Source: Roseovarius sp. MMSF_3281 (GTDB lineage Bacteria; Pseudomonadota; Alphaproteobacteria; Rhodobacterales; Rhodobacteraceae). Taken from it: DNA of 64,000 nt. Position 1 is the stretch's first letter. Every line of letters starts with the position of its first letter. The notes under the pieces are model-generated. The model did not search any database. It saw only the letters and a program-made list of their open reading frames with translations, and was not told the DNA's origin. The DNA lies in contig NZ_JASHIM010000004.1 of NCBI RefSeq assembly GCF_030733685.1, positions 62,001-126,000 on the forward strand, written 5' to 3'. Shown one piece after another: positions 2 to 61,327 of this stretch. Both the position numbers and the translations under genes were made by a program.

Positions 2-1150
2 ACGGCCAAGTTCGACCGGCTTGATCTGACGCCCGAAACGCTGCGGTTTTCCGAAAGTGAAATCAATGACTTGGTCGCACAAGTCCCGGCGCATGAACGC
101 GAGGCGCTGGAACTGGCCGCGGCGCGTATCCGCGCCTATCACGAACGCCAGGTGCCCGCCGATGAAAGCTGGACCGACGAAAGCGGGGCCACCTTGGGCT
201 GGCGTTGGACGCCGGTTTCGGCGGCGGGTTTGTATGTGCCGGGTGGTCTGGCCTCTTACCCGTCTTCGGTGCTGATGAATGCCATCCCGGCCAAGGTGGC
301 GGGGGTCGAGCGGCTGGCCATCGTGGTGCCCACGCCCGACGGGCAGGCCAACCCGCTTGTGCTGTTGGCGGCCCGGATTGCGGGGGTTGACGAGATCTAT
401 CGCATTGGCGGGGCGCAGGCGGTGGCGGCCTTGGCCTATGGCACGCAAACCATTGCCCCCGTTGATAAAATCACCGGGCCGGGCAATGCCTTCGTGGCCG
501 CGGCCAAGCGCCGGGTGTTCGGCAAGGTGGGGATCGACATGATCGCGGGGCCTTCGGAAATCCTTGTGATTGCCGACCGCGACAATAACCCCGATTGGCT
601 GGCCTTGGATATGCTCAGCCAAGCCGAACATGACGAAAGCGCGCAGGCCATCCTGATCACCGATGACCGGGCGATGGCCAAGGCGGTCGAGGCGGCGATC
701 GAGCGTAACCTGATGAGCCTTGAACGCCGCGAGATCGCTGGCGCAAGCTGGCGTGACTTCGGCGCGATCATCACGGTGCAAAACCTTGAAAAAGCAGCGG
801 AATTGTCCAACCGCATCGCGCCCGAACACCTTGAGCTTTGCGTGGCGGATGCCGAAGGCTTGAGCCGGAAAATCACCCACGCGGGGGCGATTTTTCTTGG
901 TGCCTGGACACCCGAGGCCATCGGCGATTACGTCGGCGGGCCGAACCACGTGCTGCCCACGGCGCGCTCGGCGCGGTTTAGCAGTGGCCTGTCGGTCATG
1001 GATTTCGTCAAACGCACCACGCTGGCACGGATGACCCCCGAAGCCTTGCGCGCCATTGGCCCGGCTGCCGAAACATTGGCGATTTCCGAAAGCCTGGAAG
1101 CGCATGGGTTGAGCGTGCGGGCAAGGTTGAATCACCTCAACGAAGGGTAA
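2..1150 (+). CDS. hisD: Histidinol dehydrogenase (5' end outside window)
   Basis: Zinc enzyme that makes the last two NAD-dependent oxidations of histidine synthesis, from histidinol to histidine, in the cytoplasm. The frame is already open at the first base, so the N-terminus lies outside the window; 382 residues are visible, roughly 50 short of a full protein. Family signatures are plain: GPGNAF, AGPSEILVIAD, the ligand segment QAEHDESAQA, PEAIGDYVGGPNHVLPT and the C-terminal EAHGLSVRARL. In many alphaproteobacteria the UPF0262 and small-phosphatase genes follow hisD directly. Here they lie about 4 kb downstream, with unrelated genes in between. Confidence 0.97.
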   Translation, partial: TAKFDRLDLTPETLRFSESEINDLVAQVPAHEREALELAAARIRAYHERQVPADESWTDESGATLGWRWTPVSAAGLYVPGGLASYPSSVLMNAIPAKVAGVERLAIVVPTPDGQANPLVLLAARIAGVDEIYRIGGAQAVAALAYGTQTIAPVDKITGPGNAFVAAAKRRVFGKVGIDMIAGPSEILVIADRDNNPDWLALDMLSQAEHDESAQAILITDDRAMAKAVEAAIERNLMSLERREIAGASWRDFGAIITVQNLEKAAELSNRIAPEHLELCVADAEGLSRKITHAGAIFLGAWTPEAIGDYVGGPNHVLPTARSARFSSGLSVMDFVKRTTLARMTPEALRAIGPAAETLAISESLEAHGLSVRARLNHLNEG

Positions 1151-1192: not shown

Positions 1193-1229
1193 TGTACAAA
1201 ACGTACGTTTTATACAGGCTTTTTGTACA
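1193..1229 (+). repeat. Partial three-box palindromic element (boxes A and B only)
   Basis: Lies between hisD and the exporter gene. A double box TGTACAAAACGTACG (1193-1207, centre 1200) is followed by a single box TGTACA (1224-1229, centre 1226.5). The 26.5-bp step equals that of the four complete elements at 21451, 26424, 26515 and 58985. The third box expected around 1256-1270 is absent. A further half-site TATACA at 1211-1216 keeps the nine-base pitch and makes 1193-1216 nearly a 24-bp palindrome. I read it as a degenerate or minimal copy of the same protein-binding element; that is inference. Confidence 0.6.
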
Positions 1230-18974: not shown

Positions 18975-20035
18975 GCCTCGAATCCCGGTGGTGGTGCGGC
19001 GCCTTCGGGATAAAGCGCCATGGCTTTGAAGAGCGTCCCCATTTCCTGCGGGTGGGTCAAGCGCCGATGTGCCGCGGTATGCTGTGTCAGCGCCTCGCCA
19101 CTCATCCCCTTGGCCAGGGCCTGTGCGCGTTGCGTGATGCCAAGCCGCTCCAGAAACACGCCCTGTGGGGTCAGGCGGCTATGGGCGCAAGGCGCGGCCA
19201 AGGCCAGCGCCTCGAAATCCACATGCGCCGTCAGGTCCGCCATTCCGGGGTCTGTAAAAGGGTTCACCGGCTCATGCGCTTGCAACGCCTGAAAGGTATC
19301 GCCCAAGGACCGCCAATCGCCATAATCCACGATCACCGCCGCGCCGCCCCGTGCCTTGATCTTCGCGCCGATGCTGGCGGCCACGGCCTGTGCGGGCGGC
19401 GAAAATTCCACCACGTCGCCGGGGCGCGAATCCTCCAGCCGATGGTCCAGGGCGGGCAGGGGGCTGGCCTCGCTCAGGCCAAGGGTCAACGCCCCCTCTT
19501 GCAGCCCGACCGAACGTTCGCGCCACATCTCGGCCTCGGCGCGCTCCACCTGCCGTACCGGCAGGGCATCGAAGAATTCGTTCGCCACAAGGAAAAGCGG
19601 CGCATCGGGCAAATCCTCAACACCCTCGTGCCAGGTCACATTCCAATGGGCCAGGGTCTCGGCCTGCACATCGCGCAGGGTTGCGGAGGTCTCGACCAGA
19701 TGCACCGACAAGGCGGCGTGAAACCCCGGCACCGCGCGGGTCGCCCGCAATATATCGGCCATCAATGTGCCGCGCCCCGGCCCAAGCTCGGCCAGTGTAA
19801 ACGGCTTCGGCGCGCCCTGATCCAGCCACGCCTGCGCCAATGTCAGGCCGATCAATTCGCCGAACATCTGGCTGATCTCGGGGGCGGTGGTGAAATCGCC
19901 CTTGGCCCCCAAGGGGTCGCGCGTTGTGTAATAGCCATGCTCGGGGTGCATCAGGCAAAGCGCCATGTATTCCGACAGGGGCATCGGCCCCTCGGCCCCG
20001 ATCCGCGCGGTGATGACCTCGCGCAGGGGGCTCAT
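18971..20035 (-). CDS. MidA/NDUFAF7-family SAM-dependent methyltransferase
   Basis: A 354-residue class I methyltransferase related to mitochondrial NDUFAF7, which methylates an arginine of complex I. The start [20 protein letters not shown] and [20 protein letters not shown] are the family hallmark, followed by the SAM loop [17 protein letters not shown] and [13 protein letters not shown]. It lies between lgt and pgeF with four-base overlaps on both sides, so the three are translated together. Complex I methylation here is inferred from family only. Confidence 0.92.
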
Positions 20036-20919
20036 GTCTCATGCCGCCGGGCAATCAGCAACAGGAACAGGCCCAGGGCGACCATCGGCAGTGACAAAAG
20101 CTGCCCCATGCTCAGGCCCCAATTGCCCAGATGTACGACATATCCCATCGGGTTGTCGGGCGTGATGAACTGTGCATCCGCCTGCCGGAAAAACTCCACC
20201 ACGAAACGCGACAGGCCATAGCCGATGAAAAACACGCCCGCGACCAGCCCCGGCATCCAAAGTGCCCGGTGCCGCCAAACCAGCCAGAGAATCACCGCGC
20301 CCAGCAAAAGCCCCTCAAGCCCCGCTTCATAAAGCTGCGAAGGATGGCGCGCGCAGGGGCCCTCCACCCCCGGGCAATCCTGTGCCGCCGCCGTTGGGAA
20401 CACCACGCCCCAAGGCGCATCGGTGGGCCGGCCCCAAAGCTCGGCATTGATGAAATTGGCAATCCGGCCCAGCAACAGCCCGACGGGGGCGGCCATGCAC
20501 AGAAGATCAGCCAGCGAAAGAAACCTGATGCCGCGCGACCACGCAAAGCCCAGGCAGGCCAGCATGACGCCCAGCAATCCACCGTGAAAGGCCATGCCGC
20601 CTTGCCAGACCTTCACGATCTCAACCGGGTTCTGCAAATAATATCCCGGCTGGTAAAACAGGACAAAGCCCAACCGCCCGCCAAGGATCACCCCAAGGAT
20701 CACCCAGGTCAGCAGGTCTTCGATATCGCGCACGCTTAACGGGGCCTCGCCACCCCGCCACAGGTGCCCGCGCCGCACCGCCATCACCACCAGGCGCCAG
20801 CCCAGAACGATGCCGACGATATAAGCCAGCGCATACCAGCGCAGGGCAAATTCCATGCCAAAAAGCGAGATGCTGAAAATCTCGGGCGAAATATCGGGGA
20901 AGGGGATCACGGCCTGCAT
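20032..20919 (-). CDS. lgt: Prolipoprotein diacylglyceryl transferase
   Basis: Inner-membrane enzyme that transfers diacylglycerol from phosphatidylglycerol to the lipobox cysteine, the first step of lipoprotein maturation. 295 residues with about seven hydrophobic helices. The Lgt signature [20 protein letters not shown], with its essential arginine and asparagine, and the early [17 protein letters not shown] are seen. First gene of the lgt-midA-pgeF operon; divergent from ubiK. Confidence 0.96.
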
Positions 20920-21450: not shown

Positions 21451-21528
21451 CGTACGACTCGTACGACATGCCCACGGGTCGCCGGGATTTTCGTACGAAA
21501 ACCGGGGTGTAAACGTACGACTCGTACG
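21451..21528 (-). repeat. Three-box palindromic element, copy on the minus strand
   Basis: Boxes at 21451-21465 and 21514-21528 read CGTACGACTCGTACG, the minus-strand form of CGTACGAGTCGTACG, and a single TTTTCGTACGAAAA is centred at 21494.5. Read on the minus strand the centres follow the order double, 26.5 bp, single, 36.5 bp, double, exactly as in the plus-strand copies at 26424 and 58985. It lies in the gap 21257-21577 between the 3' ends of ubiK and the CII-like gene, so it is not in a promoter position. The rest of that gap shows no gene. Confidence 0.85.
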
Positions 21529-24474: not shown

Positions 24475-24812
24475 TGCATTTTCTCCCCGTTTTCAACAGG
24501 TTGGTCCGGCCGCAACAGGACGATCCCGCCCTCGGTATCCGACAGGCCCAGAACGAGAACCTCGGACATGAAGGGCCCGATCTGGCGCGGGGGGAAGTTG
24601 GTGACGGCCATCACCTGCCGCCCCGGAAGATCCTCGGGGCTGTAGTGCGCGGTGATCTGGGCCGAGGTCTTCTTTTCCCCAAGCTCCGGGCCGAAGTCGA
24701 TCCAGAGCTTGATCGCGGGCTTGCGCGCCTCGGGGAAGGGGGCGGCACGGGTGATTGTTCCGACGCGAATATCGACCTTCAGGAAATCCTCGATACCAAT
24801 CTCATCAGCCAT
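24471..24812 (-). CDS. CsaA/YgjH-type tRNA-binding-domain protein
   Basis: A 113-residue single OB-fold protein of the tRNA_bind family, like CsaA. The pattern IEDFLKVDIRVGTITRAAPF, then FGPELGEKKTSAQITAHY and VTNFPPRQIGPFMSEVLVLG matches. CsaA-type proteins have been described as tRNA-binding or chaperone-like. Its ATG overlaps the end of proC by 8 bases and its stop overlaps the start of the dehydrogenase gene by 4. Confidence 0.88.
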   Translation of the reverse strand: MADEIGIEDFLKVDIRVGTITRAAPFPEARKPAIKLWIDFGPELGEKKTSAQITAHYSPEDLPGRQVMAVTNFPPRQIGPFMSEVLVLGLSDTEGGIVLLRPDQPVENGEKMH

Positions 24813-25620
24813 CCCGCAACTCCCGTGACCGGTCGGCGGCGGCCTTGACCGTGCGTTGCATCAAGTCAGGCAAGCCGTTGTTTTCGTTCATTAACACCTC
24901 AAGTCCGGCCTGCGTGGTGCCATTCGGGCTGGTGACGTTCTTGCGCAGTTGCGCAGGTGTTTCATCAGCGGCTTCGGCAAGCGCGCCCGCGCCGGCCACG
25001 GTGGCCTGGGCCAGTTGCATGGCAAGCTCCGGGGCCAGCCCCTCGGCCTCGCCCGCGCGGGCCATGCATTCGATCATGTGAAAGACATAGGCCGGGCCCG
25101 AGCCGGACACGCCGGTGACGGCATCCATCTGGTCTTCGCTGTCCAGTCGCACGACTTGCCCGACCGCTTCGAGAAGCGATTGCGACAGGTCCAGATGCGC
25201 GGGCGTGGCATGCGCGTTGCCGATGATCGCGGTGATCCCCCGGCCCACGGCGGCGGGGGTGTTCGGCATCGCGCGGATCAACGGGGTTTTATCGCCAAGC
25301 ACTTGTTCAAAAACGGAAATCGGCGTTCCGGCCGCGACCGAAACGAACAGCGTTTCACCGTTCCCCATGGCTGTGATCGCGGGCAGGGCATCGCCCATCA
25401 TCTGGGGTTTCACGGCGATCAGGACGATGGCGGGGGTGGCGGGAAGATCGGCGTTGATGTGAACGCCGGTGCCTTGCAGCCAGTCGGAGGGGTTGGGGTC
25501 GATCACCCAGACGGAGGTGTTGGGTAAGCCCTTGGCAAGCCAACCTTCCAGCATGGCCGAGCCCATCTTACCGCAGCCCAGTAGCACCAGCCCGTTGCGG
25601 CTGACATGGTCCATGTCCAT
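24805..25620 (-). CDS. proC: Pyrroline-5-carboxylate reductase
   Basis: Last enzyme of proline synthesis, NAD(P)H-dependent; 271 residues. The dinucleotide loop is LVLLGCGKMGSAMLEGWL, followed by AVKPQMM, RAMPNTPAAVGRG and the P5CR signature DAVTGVSGSGPAYVFHMIE. ATG 25620 has AGGGAG upstream; the track-like extension further upstream is not conserved. First gene of a three-gene unit with the tRNA-binding protein and the hydroxyacid dehydrogenase. Confidence 0.94.
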   Translation of the reverse strand: MDMDHVSRNGLVLLGCGKMGSAMLEGWLAKGLPNTSVWVIDPNPSDWLQGTGVHINADLPATPAIVLIAVKPQMMGDALPAITAMGNGETLFVSVAAGTPISVFEQVLGDKTPLIRAMPNTPAAVGRGITAIIGNAHATPAHLDLSQSLLEAVGQVVRLDSEDQMDAVTGVSGSGPAYVFHMIECMARAGEAEGLAPELAMQLAQATVAGAGALAEAADETPAQLRKNVTSPNGTTQAGLEVLMNENNGLPDLMQRTVKAAADRSRELRDG

Positions 25621-25715: not shown

Positions 25716-26216
25716 TCAGGCGCGGCCGTAGGCTTCGGCGATGGCCACTTGCAATGCGTCCTGCGGTGTGCGGTCACCCCAGATAACCAATTGAAATGCC
25801 GGGTAAAATCGCTCTGCGCTCAGGACGGCGGCCTTGATCAGCGTATCCACCTGGTCGGGGCTGACGCCTTGGCCGCCGGCCATGACCAGACCGTAGCGAT
25901 AAACCATCAGTTTCTGCTCGGCCCAATAGGTGAAGGCCCCGGCCCAGCATTGATCGTTCACGTCGTTAAGTGTTTGATACAAAACGGGAAGTTTGTCCTC
26001 GGGGGGCTCCATTTCGAAGGTGCAGACCATGCGCAGCGTTTCGTCATACCCCGACCAGGCGAGGGTGATGGAGTAGGTGCGCCATTGGCCTTCGACGGCC
26101 ATTGCGATCTGATCGTCGGCGATGCGGTCGAAGTCCCAATCATGGTGTTCGGCCAAATGTTCAACGATATCAATGGGATGAAGGTCTTCTTGGAAGAAAT
26201 GCTCGGACAGTGCCAT
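25716..26216 (-). CDS. YbjN-domain protein
   Basis: A 166-residue soluble protein of the YbjN family (a type III secretion chaperone-like fold). Typical segments are MALSEHFFQEDLHPIDIVEH, GQWRTYSITLAWSGYDETLR and VLYQTLNDVNDQCWAGAFTY. Family members are conserved beside proC in many Rhodobacteraceae, without an established function. The start at 26216 has GAGGTGGGCC upstream. It lies 95 bases upstream of proC on the same strand. Confidence 0.85.
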   Translation of the reverse strand: MALSEHFFQEDLHPIDIVEHLAEHHDWDFDRIADDQIAMAVEGQWRTYSITLAWSGYDETLRMVCTFEMEPPEDKLPVLYQTLNDVNDQCWAGAFTYWAEQKLMVYRYGLVMAGGQGVSPDQVDTLIKAAVLSAERFYPAFQLVIWGDRTPQDALQVAIAEAYGRA

Positions 26217-26353
26217 GGCCCACCTCACTTGGTTGTAGCGCGCGGAGATGGCAGCACCCCAAGCGCTATGTGCCTGCTCTATGGGAAGGGGCTAACCCCC
26301 TAGCCCATACAAGATATGGTGCGGGCAGAAATGCCGTCTGTAAAGCTATTTGT

Positions 26354-26382
26354 TGTGGATAACCGCAATAAGTTGTGGATGA
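26354..26382 (+). promoter_or_regulatory. Pair of DnaA-box-like sites
   Basis: TGTGGATAA at 26354-26362 is an exact complement of the DnaA box TTATCCACA, and TGTGGATGA at 26374-26382 has one mismatch. They are in the same orientation and exactly 20 bp apart, two helical turns. They lie in a locally AT-rich stretch of the long gap 26217-26984, just left of the tandem palindromic elements. Two sites alone do not make an origin and no origin-linked genes are nearby; DnaA titration or regulation is possible. Confidence 0.4.
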
Positions 26383-26423: not shown

Positions 26424-26501
26424 CGTACGAGTCGTACGCAAGAGGGCGGAGTTTCGTACGAAAATCGGCGCGGTCGCGGGGACAGTCGTACGAGTCGTAC
26501 G
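26424..26501 (+). repeat. Three-box palindromic element, CGTACG type
   Basis: Double box CGTACGAGTCGTACG at 26424-26438 (centre 26431), single box TTTCGTACGAAA centred at 26457.5, and a second double box of the same sequence at 26487-26501 (centre 26494). Spacings 26.5, 36.5 and 63 bp are the same as at 21451 (minus strand) and 58985. The double boxes are two CGTACG hexamers on a nine-base pitch; at 10.5 bp per turn the outer boxes face the same side of the helix and the single box the opposite side. Probably a multi-dimer protein-binding site. Confidence 0.88.
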
Positions 26502-26514
26502 AAACTTGCGGCGC

Positions 26515-26592
26515 TGTACAGTCTGTACATTTTCTACGCGGGATCTGTACGGAAATCGGGGGCGGCGGAGGGGGGAATGTACAAGTTGTACA
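26515..26592 (+). repeat. Three-box palindromic element, TGTACA type, in tandem
   Basis: Directly behind the preceding element the same geometry returns with another hexamer: TGTACAGTCTGTACA (26515-26529, centre 26522), TGTACG (26546-26551, centre 26548.5) and TGTACAAGTTGTACA (26578-26592, centre 26585). Centre distances are again 26.5, 36.5 and 63 bp. The two tandem copies are 91 bp apart centre to centre of first boxes. The change of the outer base in each hexamer with exact spacing suggests selection on layout and perhaps a paralogous binding protein. Confidence 0.8.
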
Positions 26593-26984: not shown

Positions 26985-27758
26985 ATGCGGTGGGATCGCG
27001 ACGTGAATTTTCAGACTCTCAAGAAAAATTACCACAGCAAGCGGCATTTTCTGCAAAATTTGCACCTGGCAAACCCGGGCGTGTCGGCAAGGCCATTCGT
27101 TTACATGAAGAACCACAAGGCCGCGTGTTCAACCATCATTGCCACTCTACTTCGACAAACGACGGCGCATGACGGGGCCGCGATCGGCGAGCTTGATGCG
27201 GCAACGATCCATAGCCCGCCAAAACGGCTGCTTGCCACCGGCGAAAGGGGGCTGAACGTCGATCAGGCCGAACAGGCATTAAACAACAAGGCCACATTCA
27301 AATTCACTTTCGTACGCGATCCGGTGTCACGCACAGTGTCGGCCTTTGCCGACAAGATGGGGGCAGGCAGCGTCAATAAAAGACGGCTGATGCAGTATGT
27401 CGGACGCCCTGAAGAGGATACTATCACTTTATCTGAATTCCTTGATATCATCGCGCAGGATGCCGGCGCCCTGGACCTGGACCGGCATTGGCGCCCGCAA
27501 TCGAAAGAGATTTCGTATGATCAGATCGCATACGACTTTATCGGACGGGTGGAAAATTTGACTGCCGATCTGGGCCACGTGGTGCAGACCTGCTTTTCCA
27601 TCGAGAAACCGATGATCGAGGACACTCGAAAGACGATCCGCCACACCTCGGATAGTCGAAAGTTGAAACAGACGCTGACCAGAGAAGACAAACGCAACCT
27701 CGAAACGGCGCTTGAAGCTGACCTTGCGATGTATGACCGGGTTAGCATGGCGGTGTGA
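26985..27758 (+). CDS. PAPS-dependent carbohydrate sulfotransferase-like protein (sulfotransferase family 2)
   Basis: Transfers sulfate from PAPS to a sugar or other hydroxyl. The 257-residue protein has the 5'-phosphosulfate loop FVYMKNHKAACSTI (about residues 38-51) and the 3'-phosphate motif FVRDPVSRTVSAFADKMG (about 107-124), with VENLTADL later, as in the HNK-1/chondroitin sulfotransferase family. No signal peptide. It is less GC-rich than its neighbours, stands alone, and is preceded by the tandem palindromic elements, which suggests acquisition by transfer. The acceptor is unknown; PAPS can come from the sat/cysC product. Confidence 0.82.
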   Translation: MRWDRDVNFQTLKKNYHSKRHFLQNLHLANPGVSARPFVYMKNHKAACSTIIATLLRQTTAHDGAAIGELDAATIHSPPKRLLATGERGLNVDQAEQALNNKATFKFTFVRDPVSRTVSAFADKMGAGSVNKRRLMQYVGRPEEDTITLSEFLDIIAQDAGALDLDRHWRPQSKEISYDQIAYDFIGRVENLTADLGHVVQTCFSIEKPMIEDTRKTIRHTSDSRKLKQTLTREDKRNLETALEADLAMYDRVSMAV

Positions 27759-56734: not shown

Positions 56735-57573
56735 CAAAGGATTTGGTGAAAACGGATGGTGCAAAACTGTCGATCTTTTGGGATGGCCCGAAGTGGGGGG
56801 GGCGGGCCACGGCGAGTTTCGGCGAGGTTGCGTTCAAATCCCTTGAGGCAGGGACGGAGGTGTTAACGCGGGCGATCGAAATGGTTAAGAACGCCGGGTT
56901 AACACATGTTGTCGGCCCGATGGACGGAGATACATGGCATTCATATCGCTTTGTCAGTGAAAGCGATGGATCACCGGCCTTCTTGATGGAACCGAAAGAC
57001 GCGCCCGTGGCGCGGGAGGTGTTTCAGGCCGCAGGGTTCGAACCCATCGGGCGTTATTTCTCGGCCCGGCAAAGCCTGTGTGATATCGGCACGGCACCGC
57101 CCGAAAGCGGGGCCTTCCGGATTGAAACATGGGATGGGAACGACCCGGAAGCCCTGTTTATGCAGGTGTTTGAATTATCTGTTCAAGCTTTTGAAAACAA
57201 TGCATTTTACAAACCGATCTCGCCCGAGGATTTCCTGGCGATGTATATGCCCATCGTGCCGATGCTGAAGAAAGACCTGATCTTTTTCGCGCGCAGGCCA
57301 GAGGGCGAATTGGCGGGGTTCCTGTTTGCCATTCCCGATTATGCGCAGGGGCCGGAGAGTGACACGGTGATCCTGAAAACCTATGCCAGCCTTCTGCGGG
57401 GGGCCGGGCGGGGTTTGGTGCAGGCTTGCCAGACATCCGCCAAGACATTGGGGTATAAGAATTTAATCCACGCCTTGATTCATGATTCAAACCAGTCGGC
57501 AGAGCGCAGCGAAAAAGAGGGCGGCCAGATTTTCCGCCGGTACGAATTGCTTGGGTTGAGGTTAAGTGACTGA
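56731..57573 (+). CDS. Putative acyltransferase (GNAT-like)
   Basis: A 280-residue soluble protein with two halves; HVVGPMDGDTWHSYRFVSES near residue 66 and the closing GQIFRRYELLGLRLSD are seen in a little-studied group of GNAT-related proteins. Start is TTG at 56731, four bases before the preceding stop, with a perfect GGAGGT five bases upstream, which makes this rare start convincing. It overlaps the ligase gene by eight bases. Reaction unknown; acyl transfer to the operon product is inference. Confidence 0.65.
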   Translation: MTKDLVKTDGAKLSIFWDGPKWGGRATASFGEVAFKSLEAGTEVLTRAIEMVKNAGLTHVVGPMDGDTWHSYRFVSESDGSPAFLMEPKDAPVAREVFQAAGFEPIGRYFSARQSLCDIGTAPPESGAFRIETWDGNDPEALFMQVFELSVQAFENNAFYKPISPEDFLAMYMPIVPMLKKDLIFFARRPEGELAGFLFAIPDYAQGPESDTVILKTYASLLRGAGRGLVQACQTSAKTLGYKNLIHALIHDSNQSAERSEKEGGQIFRRYELLGLRLSD

Positions 57574-58984
57574 TCTACTTGACCATTTCGACGCGGCGGT
57601 GGCCCGGCACCCGGAGCGGGTGGCGATTGTCGACGGTCGCGGCCAAGCGGTCACCTTTAGGGAATTACAAAGCCTTTCCAACGGGTTAGTCGAGAAATGG
57701 CGATGTAAGGGCGTGCAACCCGGCGACCGTGTGCTTTTGGCGATGGGAGTGAGTGCCGAACTTTACGCCAGCCTTGCGGCGCTTTGGTCCTTGGGGGCTA
57801 CAGTGGTCTTGCCGGAACCGGCCATGGGGCTGAAAGGGCTGCGCCACGCGGTGGCGACGACCAAGCCAAAATTCTTTTGTGCCAACGGGTTATATTGCTG
57901 CCTGAAAGCGCTGCTGCCGCCGCTTTGGCCGCTGCCCCTGTTGCGGGCCAGTGGGCCTCGGGAGGTAACCGAGGTTAAAGAGCGGGTTAACACGGAGGTG
58001 GCGTTAATCTCTTTCACCTCGGGCACGACCGGGGCGCCGAAGGCCATCCCGCGCAGTCATTTTTTCCTTATGGCGCAACATGATGCGGTGGCCCCGATAC
58101 TTGAAAGCGAGGCGGAAGAGCGTGATCTGGTCGCCTTCCCGGTCTTTACCTTGGTAAATCTGGCGGCGGGGCGAACCTCGATCCTGCCGGGGTGGAAGAT
58201 GAGCCGCCTGGCCGATGTGACGCCTGCGCGCTTGGGCGATTGGCTGCGCCGAACCGGGGCCACGCGGGCGCTGTTGCCGCCGTCATTGGCGGGGCTTTTG
58301 CCGCAGGCCGGGCAGACCGATCTGCGCCATGTCTTTACCGGCGGCGGGCCGGTTTTTCCCAACGTGGTCAGAGCCATAAAGGACGATCTTGGAGCCGCGG
58401 TGACCTGTGTCTATGGCTCAACCGAGGCCGAACCGATTGCCCATCTGGAGGCGCATGAAATCAGCGCGCAGGATGCCGCGCATATGGCCCAAGGCGCGGG
58501 GCTTCTGGTGGGCCATCCGGTGCCGGAACTGCGGTTAAGACTTTGCGAAGGCGAGATCGAAGTTACCGGAGATCACGTTAACAAGTCTTACCTCGACCCG
58601 GCACAAACCCTTGAAAACAAGGTGGTCGCGGGCGGTGAGGTTTGGCACCGCACGGGCGATGCCGGGCGGCTGGATGCGCAAGGGCGACTTTGGCTTTTTG
58701 GGCGCGTGGGCGATGAGGTTTCGGGACGAAACGGCCCGATCCATCCTTTTGCCGTGGAAGTGGCGGCGCAGGATTGGCCGGGGCTAAGCCGTTGTGCCTT
58801 AATGGAAAAATCGGACGGTCCAATATTGGCGGTCGAAGGGAATGCGGCCTGTTTGCAAAACTGGAGCGAGCGGGCGCGGGCCTTTGGCATTGAGCGGGTC
58901 GAGGCAATCTCGGCCATGCCGATGGACGCGCGGCACCATTCGAAAATCGACCGGGTGAAACTGGCCGACCTGTTGAAAGGTTAA
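57566..58984 (+). CDS. AMP-forming acyl-CoA/amino acid ligase
   Basis: An ANL-superfamily enzyme of 472 residues that activates a carboxylic acid with ATP. Motifs: ISFTSGTTGAPKAIPRSH (A3), VYGSTEAEPIAHLE (A5), WHRTGDAGRLDAQG (A7), FGRVGDEVSGRNG (A8) and the C-terminal lysine in HHSKIDRVKL (A10). Shorter than most acyl-CoA ligases (about 500-550). GTG start with GAGG before it, 8-base overlap with the preceding gene. Its stop codon directly touches a three-box palindromic element. Confidence 0.87.
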   Translation: MTDLLDHFDAAVARHPERVAIVDGRGQAVTFRELQSLSNGLVEKWRCKGVQPGDRVLLAMGVSAELYASLAALWSLGATVVLPEPAMGLKGLRHAVATTKPKFFCANGLYCCLKALLPPLWPLPLLRASGPREVTEVKERVNTEVALISFTSGTTGAPKAIPRSHFFLMAQHDAVAPILESEAEERDLVAFPVFTLVNLAAGRTSILPGWKMSRLADVTPARLGDWLRRTGATRALLPPSLAGLLPQAGQTDLRHVFTGGGPVFPNVVRAIKDDLGAAVTCVYGSTEAEPIAHLEAHEISAQDAAHMAQGAGLLVGHPVPELRLRLCEGEIEVTGDHVNKSYLDPAQTLENKVVAGGEVWHRTGDAGRLDAQGRLWLFGRVGDEVSGRNGPIHPFAVEVAAQDWPGLSRCALMEKSDGPILAVEGNAACLQNWSERARAFGIERVEAISAMPMDARHHSKIDRVKLADLLKG

Positions 58985-59062
58985 CGTACGAGTCGTACGT
59001 TTTACCCCCGGTTTTCGTACGAAAATCCGGCTGGGTGCGACAGCTTTCGTACGAGTCGTACG
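58985..59062 (+). repeat. Three-box palindromic element touching the end of the lipid-type operon
   Basis: Double box CGTACGAGTCGTACG at 58985-58999 (centre 58992), single TTTTCGTACGAAAA centred at 59018.5 and a second double box at 59048-59062 (centre 59055). Spacings 26.5, 36.5 and 63 bp are identical to the copy at 26424. The first base of the element follows the TAA stop codon of the ligase gene. The gap (58985-59176) separates convergent genes, and the part after the element holds no gene. Confidence 0.88.
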
Positions 59063-59176: not shown

Positions 59177-61327
59177 TCAACGCGTGGGGGCCACGTTCAA
59201 CTCGAATTGCCGGACACTGGCCTTGGGGCTGTCGTCCTGCGTGAGGCTGGAGCCGCCGCGCATGGTTGTCCCGAAGGCGGCCACGTCCAGGGCGGAGGCG
59301 ATATCGGACAGGTTGGCCGGGGTGCCTGCGTTTTGCTCCCGGGTCGTGATCACGCTGTCCTGTTCCAGAAAGGACAGGTCCTGTATCAGGGTGCCGCGCG
59401 CGGCAGGGGAGACAACCACGACCAGACGCTCGCGGCCAAAGGCGCTGTCGGTGATGCCGACCAGCCCCTTGTCGAGGCGGTCGCCGGGTTGCATCCGGCC
59501 CTTCCACATGTGGCTGATGCTGTAATTGGCGTCGATGTAGAGCGCGTTGAGGTCCACGGCCTGACCCATGTTGTTCAGCGCCATGATATGCAGTTCATCC
59601 CCCGGGATCATGCGTGGCACCTTGGCGGTGCTGATCGGGGTCAGCTCTGTCTTGCCCGCCTCGTTGGGGTTGCGGGTTTGCAGTGTGACCTCGACATCCA
59701 GCGAGGCGGCGCCAAAGGCATCGCCCATGCGCATGACATTGAGGGCGCGGGCCATTTTCGACAGGGTGTCGCCCATGGCCGAGGTCAGTGCCCCGGTGTC
59801 CTTGTCCGCCGTCGAGATGGAGGGCGCTTGCGGATCGAAGAGGCCGGAGGCGGGCAGCACCCAGACCGCATCGGGCCGGGGGCTTTGCGGGGCGATGGCA
59901 AGGCGCAGGTCGGCGGGGGCGCCGGGATCGACGAAGGTGATGCGCGGCCCCAGGGTGCCGTTTGCCGCAAGTGCGCGCGTGGCCGCGTGCGCGGCCTGTG
60001 TGGCGGGGCCGTTCAATTCGGGCAGGGCGATCTGCAATTGGAAGTCGAGGCCGGTTTCGAGTTTGCGCAGGTAGGCCCCACGCGGGATATCACCCAGTGC
60101 GAGGGCGTCCCGGGTTTCGGTGGCAATCGGCGCGGCGTTGGCCTCAAGCGCGCTGGCGCGGGTAATCCGGGCATGACCCAAGGCGGCGGTCCCCGGATCG
60201 GCGGGAGAGGCCATGATGGCCAGCCTGTCGCCCTCGTTCAGCCCAAAGAGCGTGCCCGCCGGGATTGAGACCGTGCCGGTTTCATAGTCGGGCGTGAGCG
60301 GCCATTGGGCAAGGCGGCCCGCATCGCCCCGCCCGAAGACCGGGCGATCCAGATCGCCTTCGAAGTAAGGGGTGGAGCGGGCCAGCCGCGAGACGGCATA
60401 GCGGCGCAGCACCTCTTGGCCCAGTTGTTCGTAGGTCATGTTGCCGTTCGCGGCCAGCGACTGGAACAAGGTGAAGGTGAAGACCCCATGGGGTTTGCGG
60501 CCCGTCTTGCCGGGGGGCATGTTCATCTCGGGCGTGGGTTCATTGGTTTGCGCGGCGTAGAAGGCCACGAAGGCGCCTTTTTCCTGCGCGTTGCCGGGCA
60601 GGGCGCGCGTGGTGGGGGCGCCGGCGATGTCGAGGGCGGTATCCTCGGGCGTGACCGGCAGGGTGTTGCCGGGGATGCCAAGCACGTCGGGGCCCAGTTT
60701 GCGCATCACGACCTTGTCTTCGCCGCTGGGCGCGCTGCGGGTGACGGTGCCGGAGTGGCAACTGTCGAACACCGCCCAGACATTGGCCCCGCGGGCGCGC
60801 AGGGCGGCGATCCTTTGGCCGATCTCATCGTCCACGAGGGCGTTTTCGACCTTGCCAGCCGCGTTTGCCCATGGGCCGATATCGACGGGCAGGAACAATT
60901 CGTCCAGACCGTCGATTTCCGTTGCCGGGTCGCGGGCCGGGGCCTGTGTGCCGTGGCCTGCGAAGTGCAGATAGACGAAATCTCCCGGGGCGACGGAGGT
61001 TTCGAGCGCGTCGAAGGCGGCGCGGATACGCGCCAGCGTTGCCGGGCCGTCGGCATTGTCGGTTTCGCCCAGAAGGGTGATGTCTTGCGGGGTGAAGGGA
61101 ATGGGGGCCGCATTCACAAGGTAATCGTGGACAAGCGCGACGTCGTTGGTGGTGCCCTTGAGCCAGTAGCGTTCGTCGAGGGCCGGATAGGTGGCGGCCC
61201 CAACAAGCAGGGCGTGATTGTTCCCGGCCAAAACGGGTGACGCGTGCAGCGGGCCCCAAAGTGCCAAGGTGAAGAGCCCGGAAAAACGGCAGACGGTTTG
61301 GCAAATGCCAAGAATTCGGGACAGCAT
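59177..61327 (-). CDS. Exported caspase-fold (peptidase C14) protein with C-terminal DUF4384-like domain
   Basis: A 716-residue protein. Residues 1-30 look like a Sec signal (LFTLALWGPLHA). The caspase domain (about 35-330) has the catalytic pair H125 in YLHFAGHGTQ and C190 in VFDSCHSGTV, and the usual start NNHALLVGAATYPALDE. The C-terminal part (about 590-690) with RMIPGDELHIMALNN, YIDANYSISHMWKG and ERLVVVVSPAARG resembles DUF4384. Start at 61327 with AGGTG upstream. It diverges from a Sel1-repeat protein gene 131 bp away; the two probably work together outside the cytoplasm. Confidence 0.87.
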   Translation of the reverse strand: MLSRILGICQTVCRFSGLFTLALWGPLHASPVLAGNNHALLVGAATYPALDERYWLKGTTNDVALVHDYLVNAAPIPFTPQDITLLGETDNADGPATLARIRAAFDALETSVAPGDFVYLHFAGHGTQAPARDPATEIDGLDELFLPVDIGPWANAAGKVENALVDDEIGQRIAALRARGANVWAVFDSCHSGTVTRSAPSGEDKVVMRKLGPDVLGIPGNTLPVTPEDTALDIAGAPTTRALPGNAQEKGAFVAFYAAQTNEPTPEMNMPPGKTGRKPHGVFTFTLFQSLAANGNMTYEQLGQEVLRRYAVSRLARSTPYFEGDLDRPVFGRGDAGRLAQWPLTPDYETGTVSIPAGTLFGLNEGDRLAIMASPADPGTAALGHARITRASALEANAAPIATETRDALALGDIPRGAYLRKLETGLDFQLQIALPELNGPATQAAHAATRALAANGTLGPRITFVDPGAPADLRLAIAPQSPRPDAVWVLPASGLFDPQAPSISTADKDTGALTSAMGDTLSKMARALNVMRMGDAFGAASLDVEVTLQTRNPNEAGKTELTPISTAKVPRMIPGDELHIMALNNMGQAVDLNALYIDANYSISHMWKGRMQPGDRLDKGLVGITDSAFGRERLVVVVSPAARGTLIQDLSFLEQDSVITTREQNAGTPANLSDIASALDVAAFGTTMRGGSSLTQDDSPKASVRQFELNVAPTR

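What the first reader, a model, noticed from the sequence alone, without database searches (positions are those of the whole stretch)
26424..26501. An oriented 78-bp element of three palindromic boxes with fixed spacing, in complete form at three separate loci
At 26424-26501 (+), 58985-59062 (+) and 21451-21528 (-) the same layout appears: double box CGTACGAGTCGTACG, single box TTTCGTACGAAA, double box. Centres are 26.5 and 36.5 bp apart in every copy, 63 bp in total, and the minus-strand copy is the exact mirror image, so the element has a direction. With 10.5 bp per turn the outer boxes lie on one face of the helix (6.0 turns) and the middle box on the opposite face (2.5 and 3.5 turns). Sequence between boxes varies much more, though GAAA and AATCCGG-like flanks recur. 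I know no described element of this form. A protein that binds as tandem dimers (ribbon-helix-helix proteins do this on 8-9 base pitches) is a good candidate.
Basis: seen in the sequence. Interest (0 to 1): 0.88.

Follow-up and report, generated by a model that had tools for sequence, protein, structure and literature searches.

The report
Polar border marks in Roseovarius chromosomes
A short, strictly spaced pattern of mirror-image DNA words is repeated about 66 times in this marine bacterium, and the way each copy points tends to show on which side the stable genes lie and on which side the changeable ones, so it looks like an undescribed signpost of chromosome organisation.

Summary
The exact layout (GTAC at 0, +9, +31, +63, +72) occurs 66 times in the window's 4.3-Mb Roseovarius genome, 0 in the reversed control. 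The left half, with an extra box at +18, occurs in 13 of 84 Roseovarius genomes and in none of 197 other genera of the family. Species have their own dialects; copies stay at orthologous places while spacers drift, so the boxes are under selection as DNA.

The new result is polarity. Along the element's direction third-codon GC steps up in 56 of 57 copies tested in G007, 30 of 34 in G000, 20 of 20 in G034, 19 of 20 in G073; strand skew shifts too. Where only one flank is conserved between species it is the upstream one, 20 to 1 for G007. The copies look like borders of conserved blocks, pointing into variable blocks.

Mechanism is inferred: a protein array directing recombination-linked DNA synthesis. 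One genome without these boxes also shows local skew swings, so the boxes alone do not explain the skew.

The parts
26424..26501 (+). Complete element, CGTACG boxes: double box 26424-26438, middle box 26452-26463 (TTTCGTACGAAA), double box 26487-26501
26515..26592 (+).
21451..21528 (-). Complete element, CGTACG boxes
58985..59062 (+). Complete element, begins right after the stop codon of the gene at 57566-58984
1193..1229 (+). Left half of the element (boxes at 0, +9, +18 as ATAC, +31); no right double box
25716..26216 (-). YbjN-family gene on the upstream side of the 26424 element, next to proC (24805-25620, -)
26985..27758 (+). Sulfotransferase-family gene on the downstream side of the 26515 element
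57566..58984 (+). AMP-binding enzyme gene, upstream neighbour of the 58985 element
59177..61327 (-). Caspase-domain protein gene, downstream neighbour of the 58985 element
71..1150 (+). Histidinol dehydrogenase gene, upstream neighbour of the left-half element at 1193
20032..20919 (-). lgt, a conserved gene on the DOWNSTREAM side of the 21451 element: does not fit the simple border rule

Best explanation
The element is a polar border mark. A dedicated DNA-binding protein, most likely as tandem dimers on the 9-bp pitch, sits on it at the edge of a conserved gene block, and the mark points into the neighbouring variable block. Shown here: layout, copy number, dialects, boxes kept while spacers drift, composition step along the element's direction, conserved upstream and replaced downstream flank. 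Inferred: the protein array fixes where recombination-linked DNA synthesis starts, for example by stopping resection of a DNA end that comes from a break in the variable block. The kept 3' strand would lie upstream for 1-2 kb and new synthesis would run from the border into the variable block. Repeated over evolution this would give a strand bias that begins 1-2 kb upstream, runs downstream for roughly 20 kb and declines steadily between facing elements.
For: 66 exact copies, control 0. Third-codon GC steps up along the element in 56 of 57 copies tested of 65 in G007, 30 of 34 tested of 66 in G000, 20 of 20 tested of 21 in G034, 19 of 20 in G073. Gene-direction-corrected third-position strand component rises from about 0.03-0.04 at -4 to -2 kb to 0.12-0.20 downstream in G007 and G000, likewise in G034; raw skew rises in 50 of 56, 26 of 33 and 15 of 20 copies. 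The effect is the same with a sense or an antisense upstream gene. 17 copies in 800 kb against 1000 random intergenic sets: 4 reach the step, 1 the local value. Flank conservation 20 upstream-only against 1 downstream-only for G007 versus four genomes, 59 pairs with both. Steady fall of the strand component across facing intervals, and low third-codon GC between diverging copies.
Against: G016, without left-half matches, shows strong local skew swings in the 100 kb read, with the same downstream sign at two orthologous junctions, so the boxes alone do not make the skew. hemE over 30 genomes: no relation between GTAC boxes after the stop codon and skew (p 0.86). Raw skew step absent in G073 (10 of 20, p 0.87). 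In the window the 58985 copy has higher skew upstream than downstream, and the 21451 copy has only a small GC step with lgt on its downstream side. GC differences may simply be those of conserved and variable genes. The 30 proteins scanned do not divide cleanly into housekeeping and accessory. No protein, break or synthesis was observed.
Confidence: 0.35

Rival explanations
1. Border of chromosome folding or of a one-way spreading nucleoid protein. The oriented array blocks a loop-forming complex or nucleates a protein that spreads into the variable block; composition differences follow from block content.
For: Oriented arrays at block borders, facing copies around high-GC3 intervals and diverging copies around low-GC3 ones; independence from gene direction.
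Against: Does not by itself explain a strand-specific shift that begins 1-2 kb upstream; orientations do not alternate more than chance (30 changes of 54, p 0.30).
Confidence: 0.2
2. Start site for DNA transfer or packaging (like oriT or pac) that begins in the conserved flank and runs into the variable block.
For: Same geometry: 1-2 kb of conserved flank, then the variable side.
Against: No transfer or packaging gene was tied to the element; about 66 such sites per genome would be unprecedented as far as I know.
Confidence: 0.15
3. Transcription terminator or insulator between operons, by protein roadblock or hairpin.
For: 35 of 66 copies abut a stop codon within 15 bp (counted) against 548 of 6600 random intergenic positions; some copies have a GC-rich stem around the middle box.
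Against: 27 of 66 have a 5' end as upstream neighbour; stem pairing is mostly near expectation; cannot explain polarity over several kb independent of gene direction.
Confidence: 0.12
4. Noc/ParB-like site set for segregation or division control; the middle box TTTCGTACGAAA differs from parS and NBS only in the central four bases.
For: parS TGTTTCACGTGAAACA and NBS TATTTCCCGGGAAATA; a similar scattered placement.
Against: Of 14 genomes, carriers G007, G030 and G073 have only two ParB_N matches, and no ParB set separates carriers from non-carriers; overlapping boxes at 9-bp pitch do not suit one 14-bp dimer site.
Confidence: 0.05
5. Mobile repeat (REP/RAYT-like or MITE).
For: Dispersed intergenic palindromic repeat, often at 3' ends, with dialects.
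Against: No Y1 transposase match in G000, G007, G030, G014, G034, G073 or G064; one borderline match in carrier G028 and one in non-carrier G001. 54 of 66 copies sit at the same place and orientation in G007 while spacers diverged.
Confidence: 0.03

Closest known systems
Noc-binding sites (NBS) and parS
   Same: Palindromic sites scattered over the chromosome; middle box shares TTTC....GAAA (sequences from passages of PMC7383237)
   Different: Here five to six boxes in fixed order on a 9-bp pitch, orientation carries information, no distinguishing ParB paralog found
AIMS and KOPS, strand-biased octamers
   Same: Orientation follows leading-strand-like composition (AIMS: abstract of PMC5993296; KOPS recalled)
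   Different: 8 bp against 78 bp; here orientation follows local composition and the borders of blocks; copy numbers of KOPS were not looked up
Chi
   Same: Polar site whose upstream strand becomes single-stranded and from which synthesis can run downstream (recalled; abstract of PMC8022716 seen)
   Different: Chi is short and read by the nuclease itself; here palindromic boxes at one copy per about 65 kb
REP/REPIN repeats with RAYT transposases
   Same: Extragenic palindromic repeats with lineage-specific sequence (listing)
   Different: No Y1 transposase in seven of eight carriers tested, conserved positions, drifting spacers
Human skew N-domains and oriented CTCF borders (recalled)
   Same: Upward skew change at borders, steady decline between, facing marks around a domain
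   Different: Bacterial, tens of kb, no origin or loop shown; resemblance of shape only

Membership tests
Noc/ParB site | 14-16 bp palindrome TTTC-N4-GAAA | tested here: inconclusive
   Middle box fits in the G000/G007/G030 dialect, not in G014
Noc/ParB site | ParB-family protein special to carriers | tested here: not met
   PF02195 in 14 genomes: canonical ParB in all, no set separating carriers
REP/RAYT | Y1 (RAYT) transposase in the genome | tested here: not met
   0 matches in 7 of 8 carriers tested, borderline in G028
Mobile repeat | Near-identical copies at non-orthologous places | tested here: not met
   Spacers diverge, positions kept for 54 of 66
Structured RNA / Rfam element | Match to a curated family | tested here: not met
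   0 matches: 10 loci at E <= 1, 4 loci at gathering score
Intrinsic terminator | Conserved stem with compensatory changes | tested here: not met
   153 copies: most stem pairs beyond the box near expectation (e.g. 87 against 84.7); excess only at a few, such as 29-36 (117 against 94.2), 26-39 and 20-45
AIMS | 8-bp word, leading-strand biased, denser toward terminus | tested here: not met
   78-bp layout; terminus gradient not tested
Chi | Recognition by RecBCD or AddAB and stimulation of recombination | not testable with these tools
   No experiment
RHH tandem-dimer operator | Cognate ribbon-helix-helix protein binds the boxes | not testable with these tools
   PF13467 gene beside one element in three related genomes, but present in 14 of 14

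The most novel reading that the evidence does not exclude
Roseovarius chromosomes carry an oriented, protein-read border mark that separates conserved from variable blocks and fixes the direction of DNA synthesis or recombination into the variable blocks: a bacterial counterpart of oriented domain borders, whose sequence changes in concert at some 60 sites as the reading protein changes.
Probability: 0.25. Interest if true: 0.95.

Novelty: categorically new. Interest (0 to 1): 0.85.

Why it matters
No bacterial site that I know of, and none listed in nine paper searches, has an orientation that predicts on which side the conserved genes lie. If the polarity is causal it gives a handle on how bacteria keep a stable gene backbone while blocks between its parts are exchanged. 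It would also mean that local strand skew, usually read as one origin and one terminus, can record a second process. The concerted change of sequence at dozens of fixed sites is a natural case of co-evolution between a DNA-binding protein and all its sites.

Tried and rejected
RNA hairpin around the middle box: pairing mostly near expectation over 153 copies. Even spacing along the chromosome: only slightly more even than random, CV 0.79 against 0.97, p 0.04. Alternating orientation: 30 changes of 54, 27.1 expected, p 0.30. Skew due to gene direction: not supported by regression or by splitting on neighbour orientation. Skew due to one oriented word: top words are many G-rich ones; the most one-sided, CGAGAG 71 against 4 downstream in G007, was not followed. 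Inversions between elements: rejected by argument only, since they average to zero downstream. Chromosomal origin at 26.4 kb: two DnaA-box-like words (recalled consensus) lie at about 26350-26380, but ten proteins scanned there and nearby show no origin genes. ParB/Noc and REP/RAYT. hemE test of causality: no relation (p 0.86), although the five highest skews belong to genomes with half, TTAC-type or degraded-looking elements.

Not evidence: one search used a pattern with a spacing error of one base; a wrong regular expression, repeated. Two notebook slips: the genome counts in the entry, and the distance 'about 20 bp' in the entry (it is 5 bp from stop codon to GTAC).

Rows dropped or limits of counts: four single matches outside Roseovarius (L074, L090, L101, L125) were left out after inspection. 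Orthology pairs need exact copies on both sides, so degraded copies do not count. GC3 and skew tests use only copies with enough sequence fetched. In one search the contig is taken as circular, one overlapping copy (2769135) is left out, and one copy with a one-base deletion is added for the 800-kb intervals. Genes come from a simple caller of my own. Pairs over ten genome comparisons are not independent.

Full report
OBSERVATION. The three copies are real. The window holds a fourth exact copy at 26516-26591 (+); 100 shuffles give none. The whole genome G000 has 66 exact copies and none for the reversed pattern. The genus is Roseovarius, judged from the named contigs of other carriers.

ANATOMY. 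In 112 distinct copies with flanks the GTAC cores demanded by the pattern are joined by conserved box edges, TTTC...GAAA around the middle box and AAATCSG on its right; positions 48-59 carry little information. Many copies have a further GTAC at +18, so the left arm runs 0, +9, +18, +31. Each carrier has its own dialect of the layout: CGTACGAGTCGTACG in G000, G007 and G030, other edge bases in G014, R. litorisediminis and OX638333. G034 and G060 show left halves without the right double box in the loci read. G019, G024, G074 and G094 have one to three copies each with TTAC/GTAA cores at the same spacing, 4 of 83 genomes. The GTAC left half is found in 13 of 84 Roseovarius genomes and in none of 197 other genera of the family, one genome each.

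SELECTION. Of 66 copies in G000, 54 have an exact copy at the orthologous place and orientation in G007, while spacer positions 47-61 differ in 33-63% of pairs. Around these copies the upstream flank beyond 40 bp differs by 10-15% and the downstream flank by 23-37% (48 pairs with both flanks, gaps counted). Only exact copies were eligible. Whole copies switch between CGTACG and TGTACA type between orthologs, with intermediates. Stem pairing around the middle box is mostly near expectation, so selection appears to act on DNA rather than on an RNA hairpin.

PLACEMENT. Left neighbours present their 3' end in 39 of 66 cases, 28 of these stop codons within 15 bp; 27 copies lie between convergent and 10 between divergent genes. 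Counting either side, 35 of 66 abut a stop codon within 15 bp, against 548 of 6600 random intergenic positions.

POLARITY. On the element's own strand GC skew within 1.5 kb is positive for 61 of 65 copies in G007 and 64 of 68 rows in G000, where 68 includes repeated loci. The third-position strand component, corrected for gene direction, rises in G007 from 0.04 at -4 to -2 kb through 0.10 and 0.17 to 0.16-0.20 downstream; in G000 from 0.03-0.04 to 0.12-0.16; in G034 from 0.03-0.06 to 0.18-0.19 and then falls to 0.09 at 6-9 kb. Raw skew rises in 50 of 56, 26 of 33 and 15 of 20 copies (p 1.7e-9, 5.6e-6, 7e-4). In G073 the component rises from 0.00-0.03 to 0.07-0.13, but raw skew does not (10 of 20). 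The effect is the same for sense and antisense upstream genes among 127 copies. GC3 steps up in 56 of 57, 30 of 34, 20 of 20 and 19 of 20 copies tested in G007, G000, G034 and G073. In 800 kb of G007, 17 copies exceed all but 4 of 1000 random intergenic sets for the step and all but 1 for the local value. In the window GC3 rises at all four copies (by 0.017 to 0.088), skew at three of four.

BLOCKS. In those 800 kb, intervals between diverging copies have GC3 0.702-0.767 (7), between facing copies 0.787-0.817 (6), between copies in tandem 0.783-0.799 (4). Over G007 contig C1 diverging gaps are shorter than facing ones (medians 21 and 49 kb, 15 each, p 0.0014). The strand component falls steadily across facing intervals, 0.05 to -0.16 in six steps (6 intervals). 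Among 20 low-GC3 proteins scanned are both glycyl-tRNA synthetase subunits, homoserine dehydrogenase, glpX and folE2, but also MatE and nickel transporters. Among 10 high-GC3 proteins are a molybdopterin dehydrogenase, penicillin amidase and an MFS transporter, but also a LeuA-like enzyme. So the reading 'conserved against variable' rests mainly on flank conservation: for G007 against G000, G034, G073 and G014, 59 pairs keep both flanks, 20 only the upstream and 1 only the downstream one (p 2e-5). Over all ten comparisons, which share genomes, it is 79, 31 and 3.

LIMITS. G016, with no left-half match, shows skew swings from +0.11 to -0.14 to +0.18 in the 100 kb read while GC3 stays 0.83-0.89; at two orthologous junctions the downstream skew has the same sign as in carriers. 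Hence the boxes do not by themselves make the skew. hemE gives no relation to GTAC boxes. GC3 differences may belong to gene content. The copy at 21451 has lgt on its downstream side.

MECHANISM. A strand bias beginning 1-2 kb upstream, leading-strand-like composition (G over C, T over A) running downstream for roughly 20 kb (20 copies) and a steady decline between facing marks are what recombination-dependent DNA synthesis starting at block borders would give. This is inference. Folding border, transfer start and terminator remain open; no protein is known. The PF13467 gene 5 bp before one element in three related genomes is universal in the 14 genomes tested.

NOVELTY. Nine paper searches listed no described element of this form. 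I read the abstract and outline of two papers and three passages of one; otherwise listings only. Most subscription papers are not held, so absence from print is not proven.

Noticed in passing
G007 contig C1 470001-1270000 (L291-L310, L331-L350), e.g. 510675+, 761843+, 847744+, 904203-, 1055257-, 1159770+, 1190598+: A second intergenic repeat of about 165 bp: GTAC boxes at 0, +13, +22, then about 11-bp repeats ACCGACG-N4, then TTAACC and GATTCG. Ten matches to the repeat core in 800 kb, one of them without GTAC boxes. No Rfam match in 4 loci.
   Followed up: partly
G000/G007 orthologous pairs, e.g. G000 C33:115809 and G007 C1:1296131: Whole elements switch from CGTACG to TGTACA boxes between orthologs, all five boxes together, with intermediates elsewhere.
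   Followed up: partly
G034 loci L264, L277, L233: In place of the right double box G034 has a long palindrome of the kind TTGCGTCCATNATGGACGCAA.
   Followed up: no
G000 L020, G007 L049, G030 L089; G014 C5:58041-58244: Small ribbon-helix-helix (PF13467) gene directly before an element in three related genomes; another PF13467 match lies 169 bp from an element in G014.
   Followed up: partly
window 26350-26380: Two words like DnaA boxes (TTGTGGATAA, TTGTGGATGA; consensus recalled) just upstream of the 26424 element.
   Followed up: partly
G016 C1:402001-502000 (L379-L383): Local skew swings of tens of kb in a genome without the boxes, so multi-domain skew may be a wider trait of the genus.
   Followed up: partly
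window 59177-61327 (-): A 716-aa caspase-domain (Peptidase_C14) protein.
   Followed up: no
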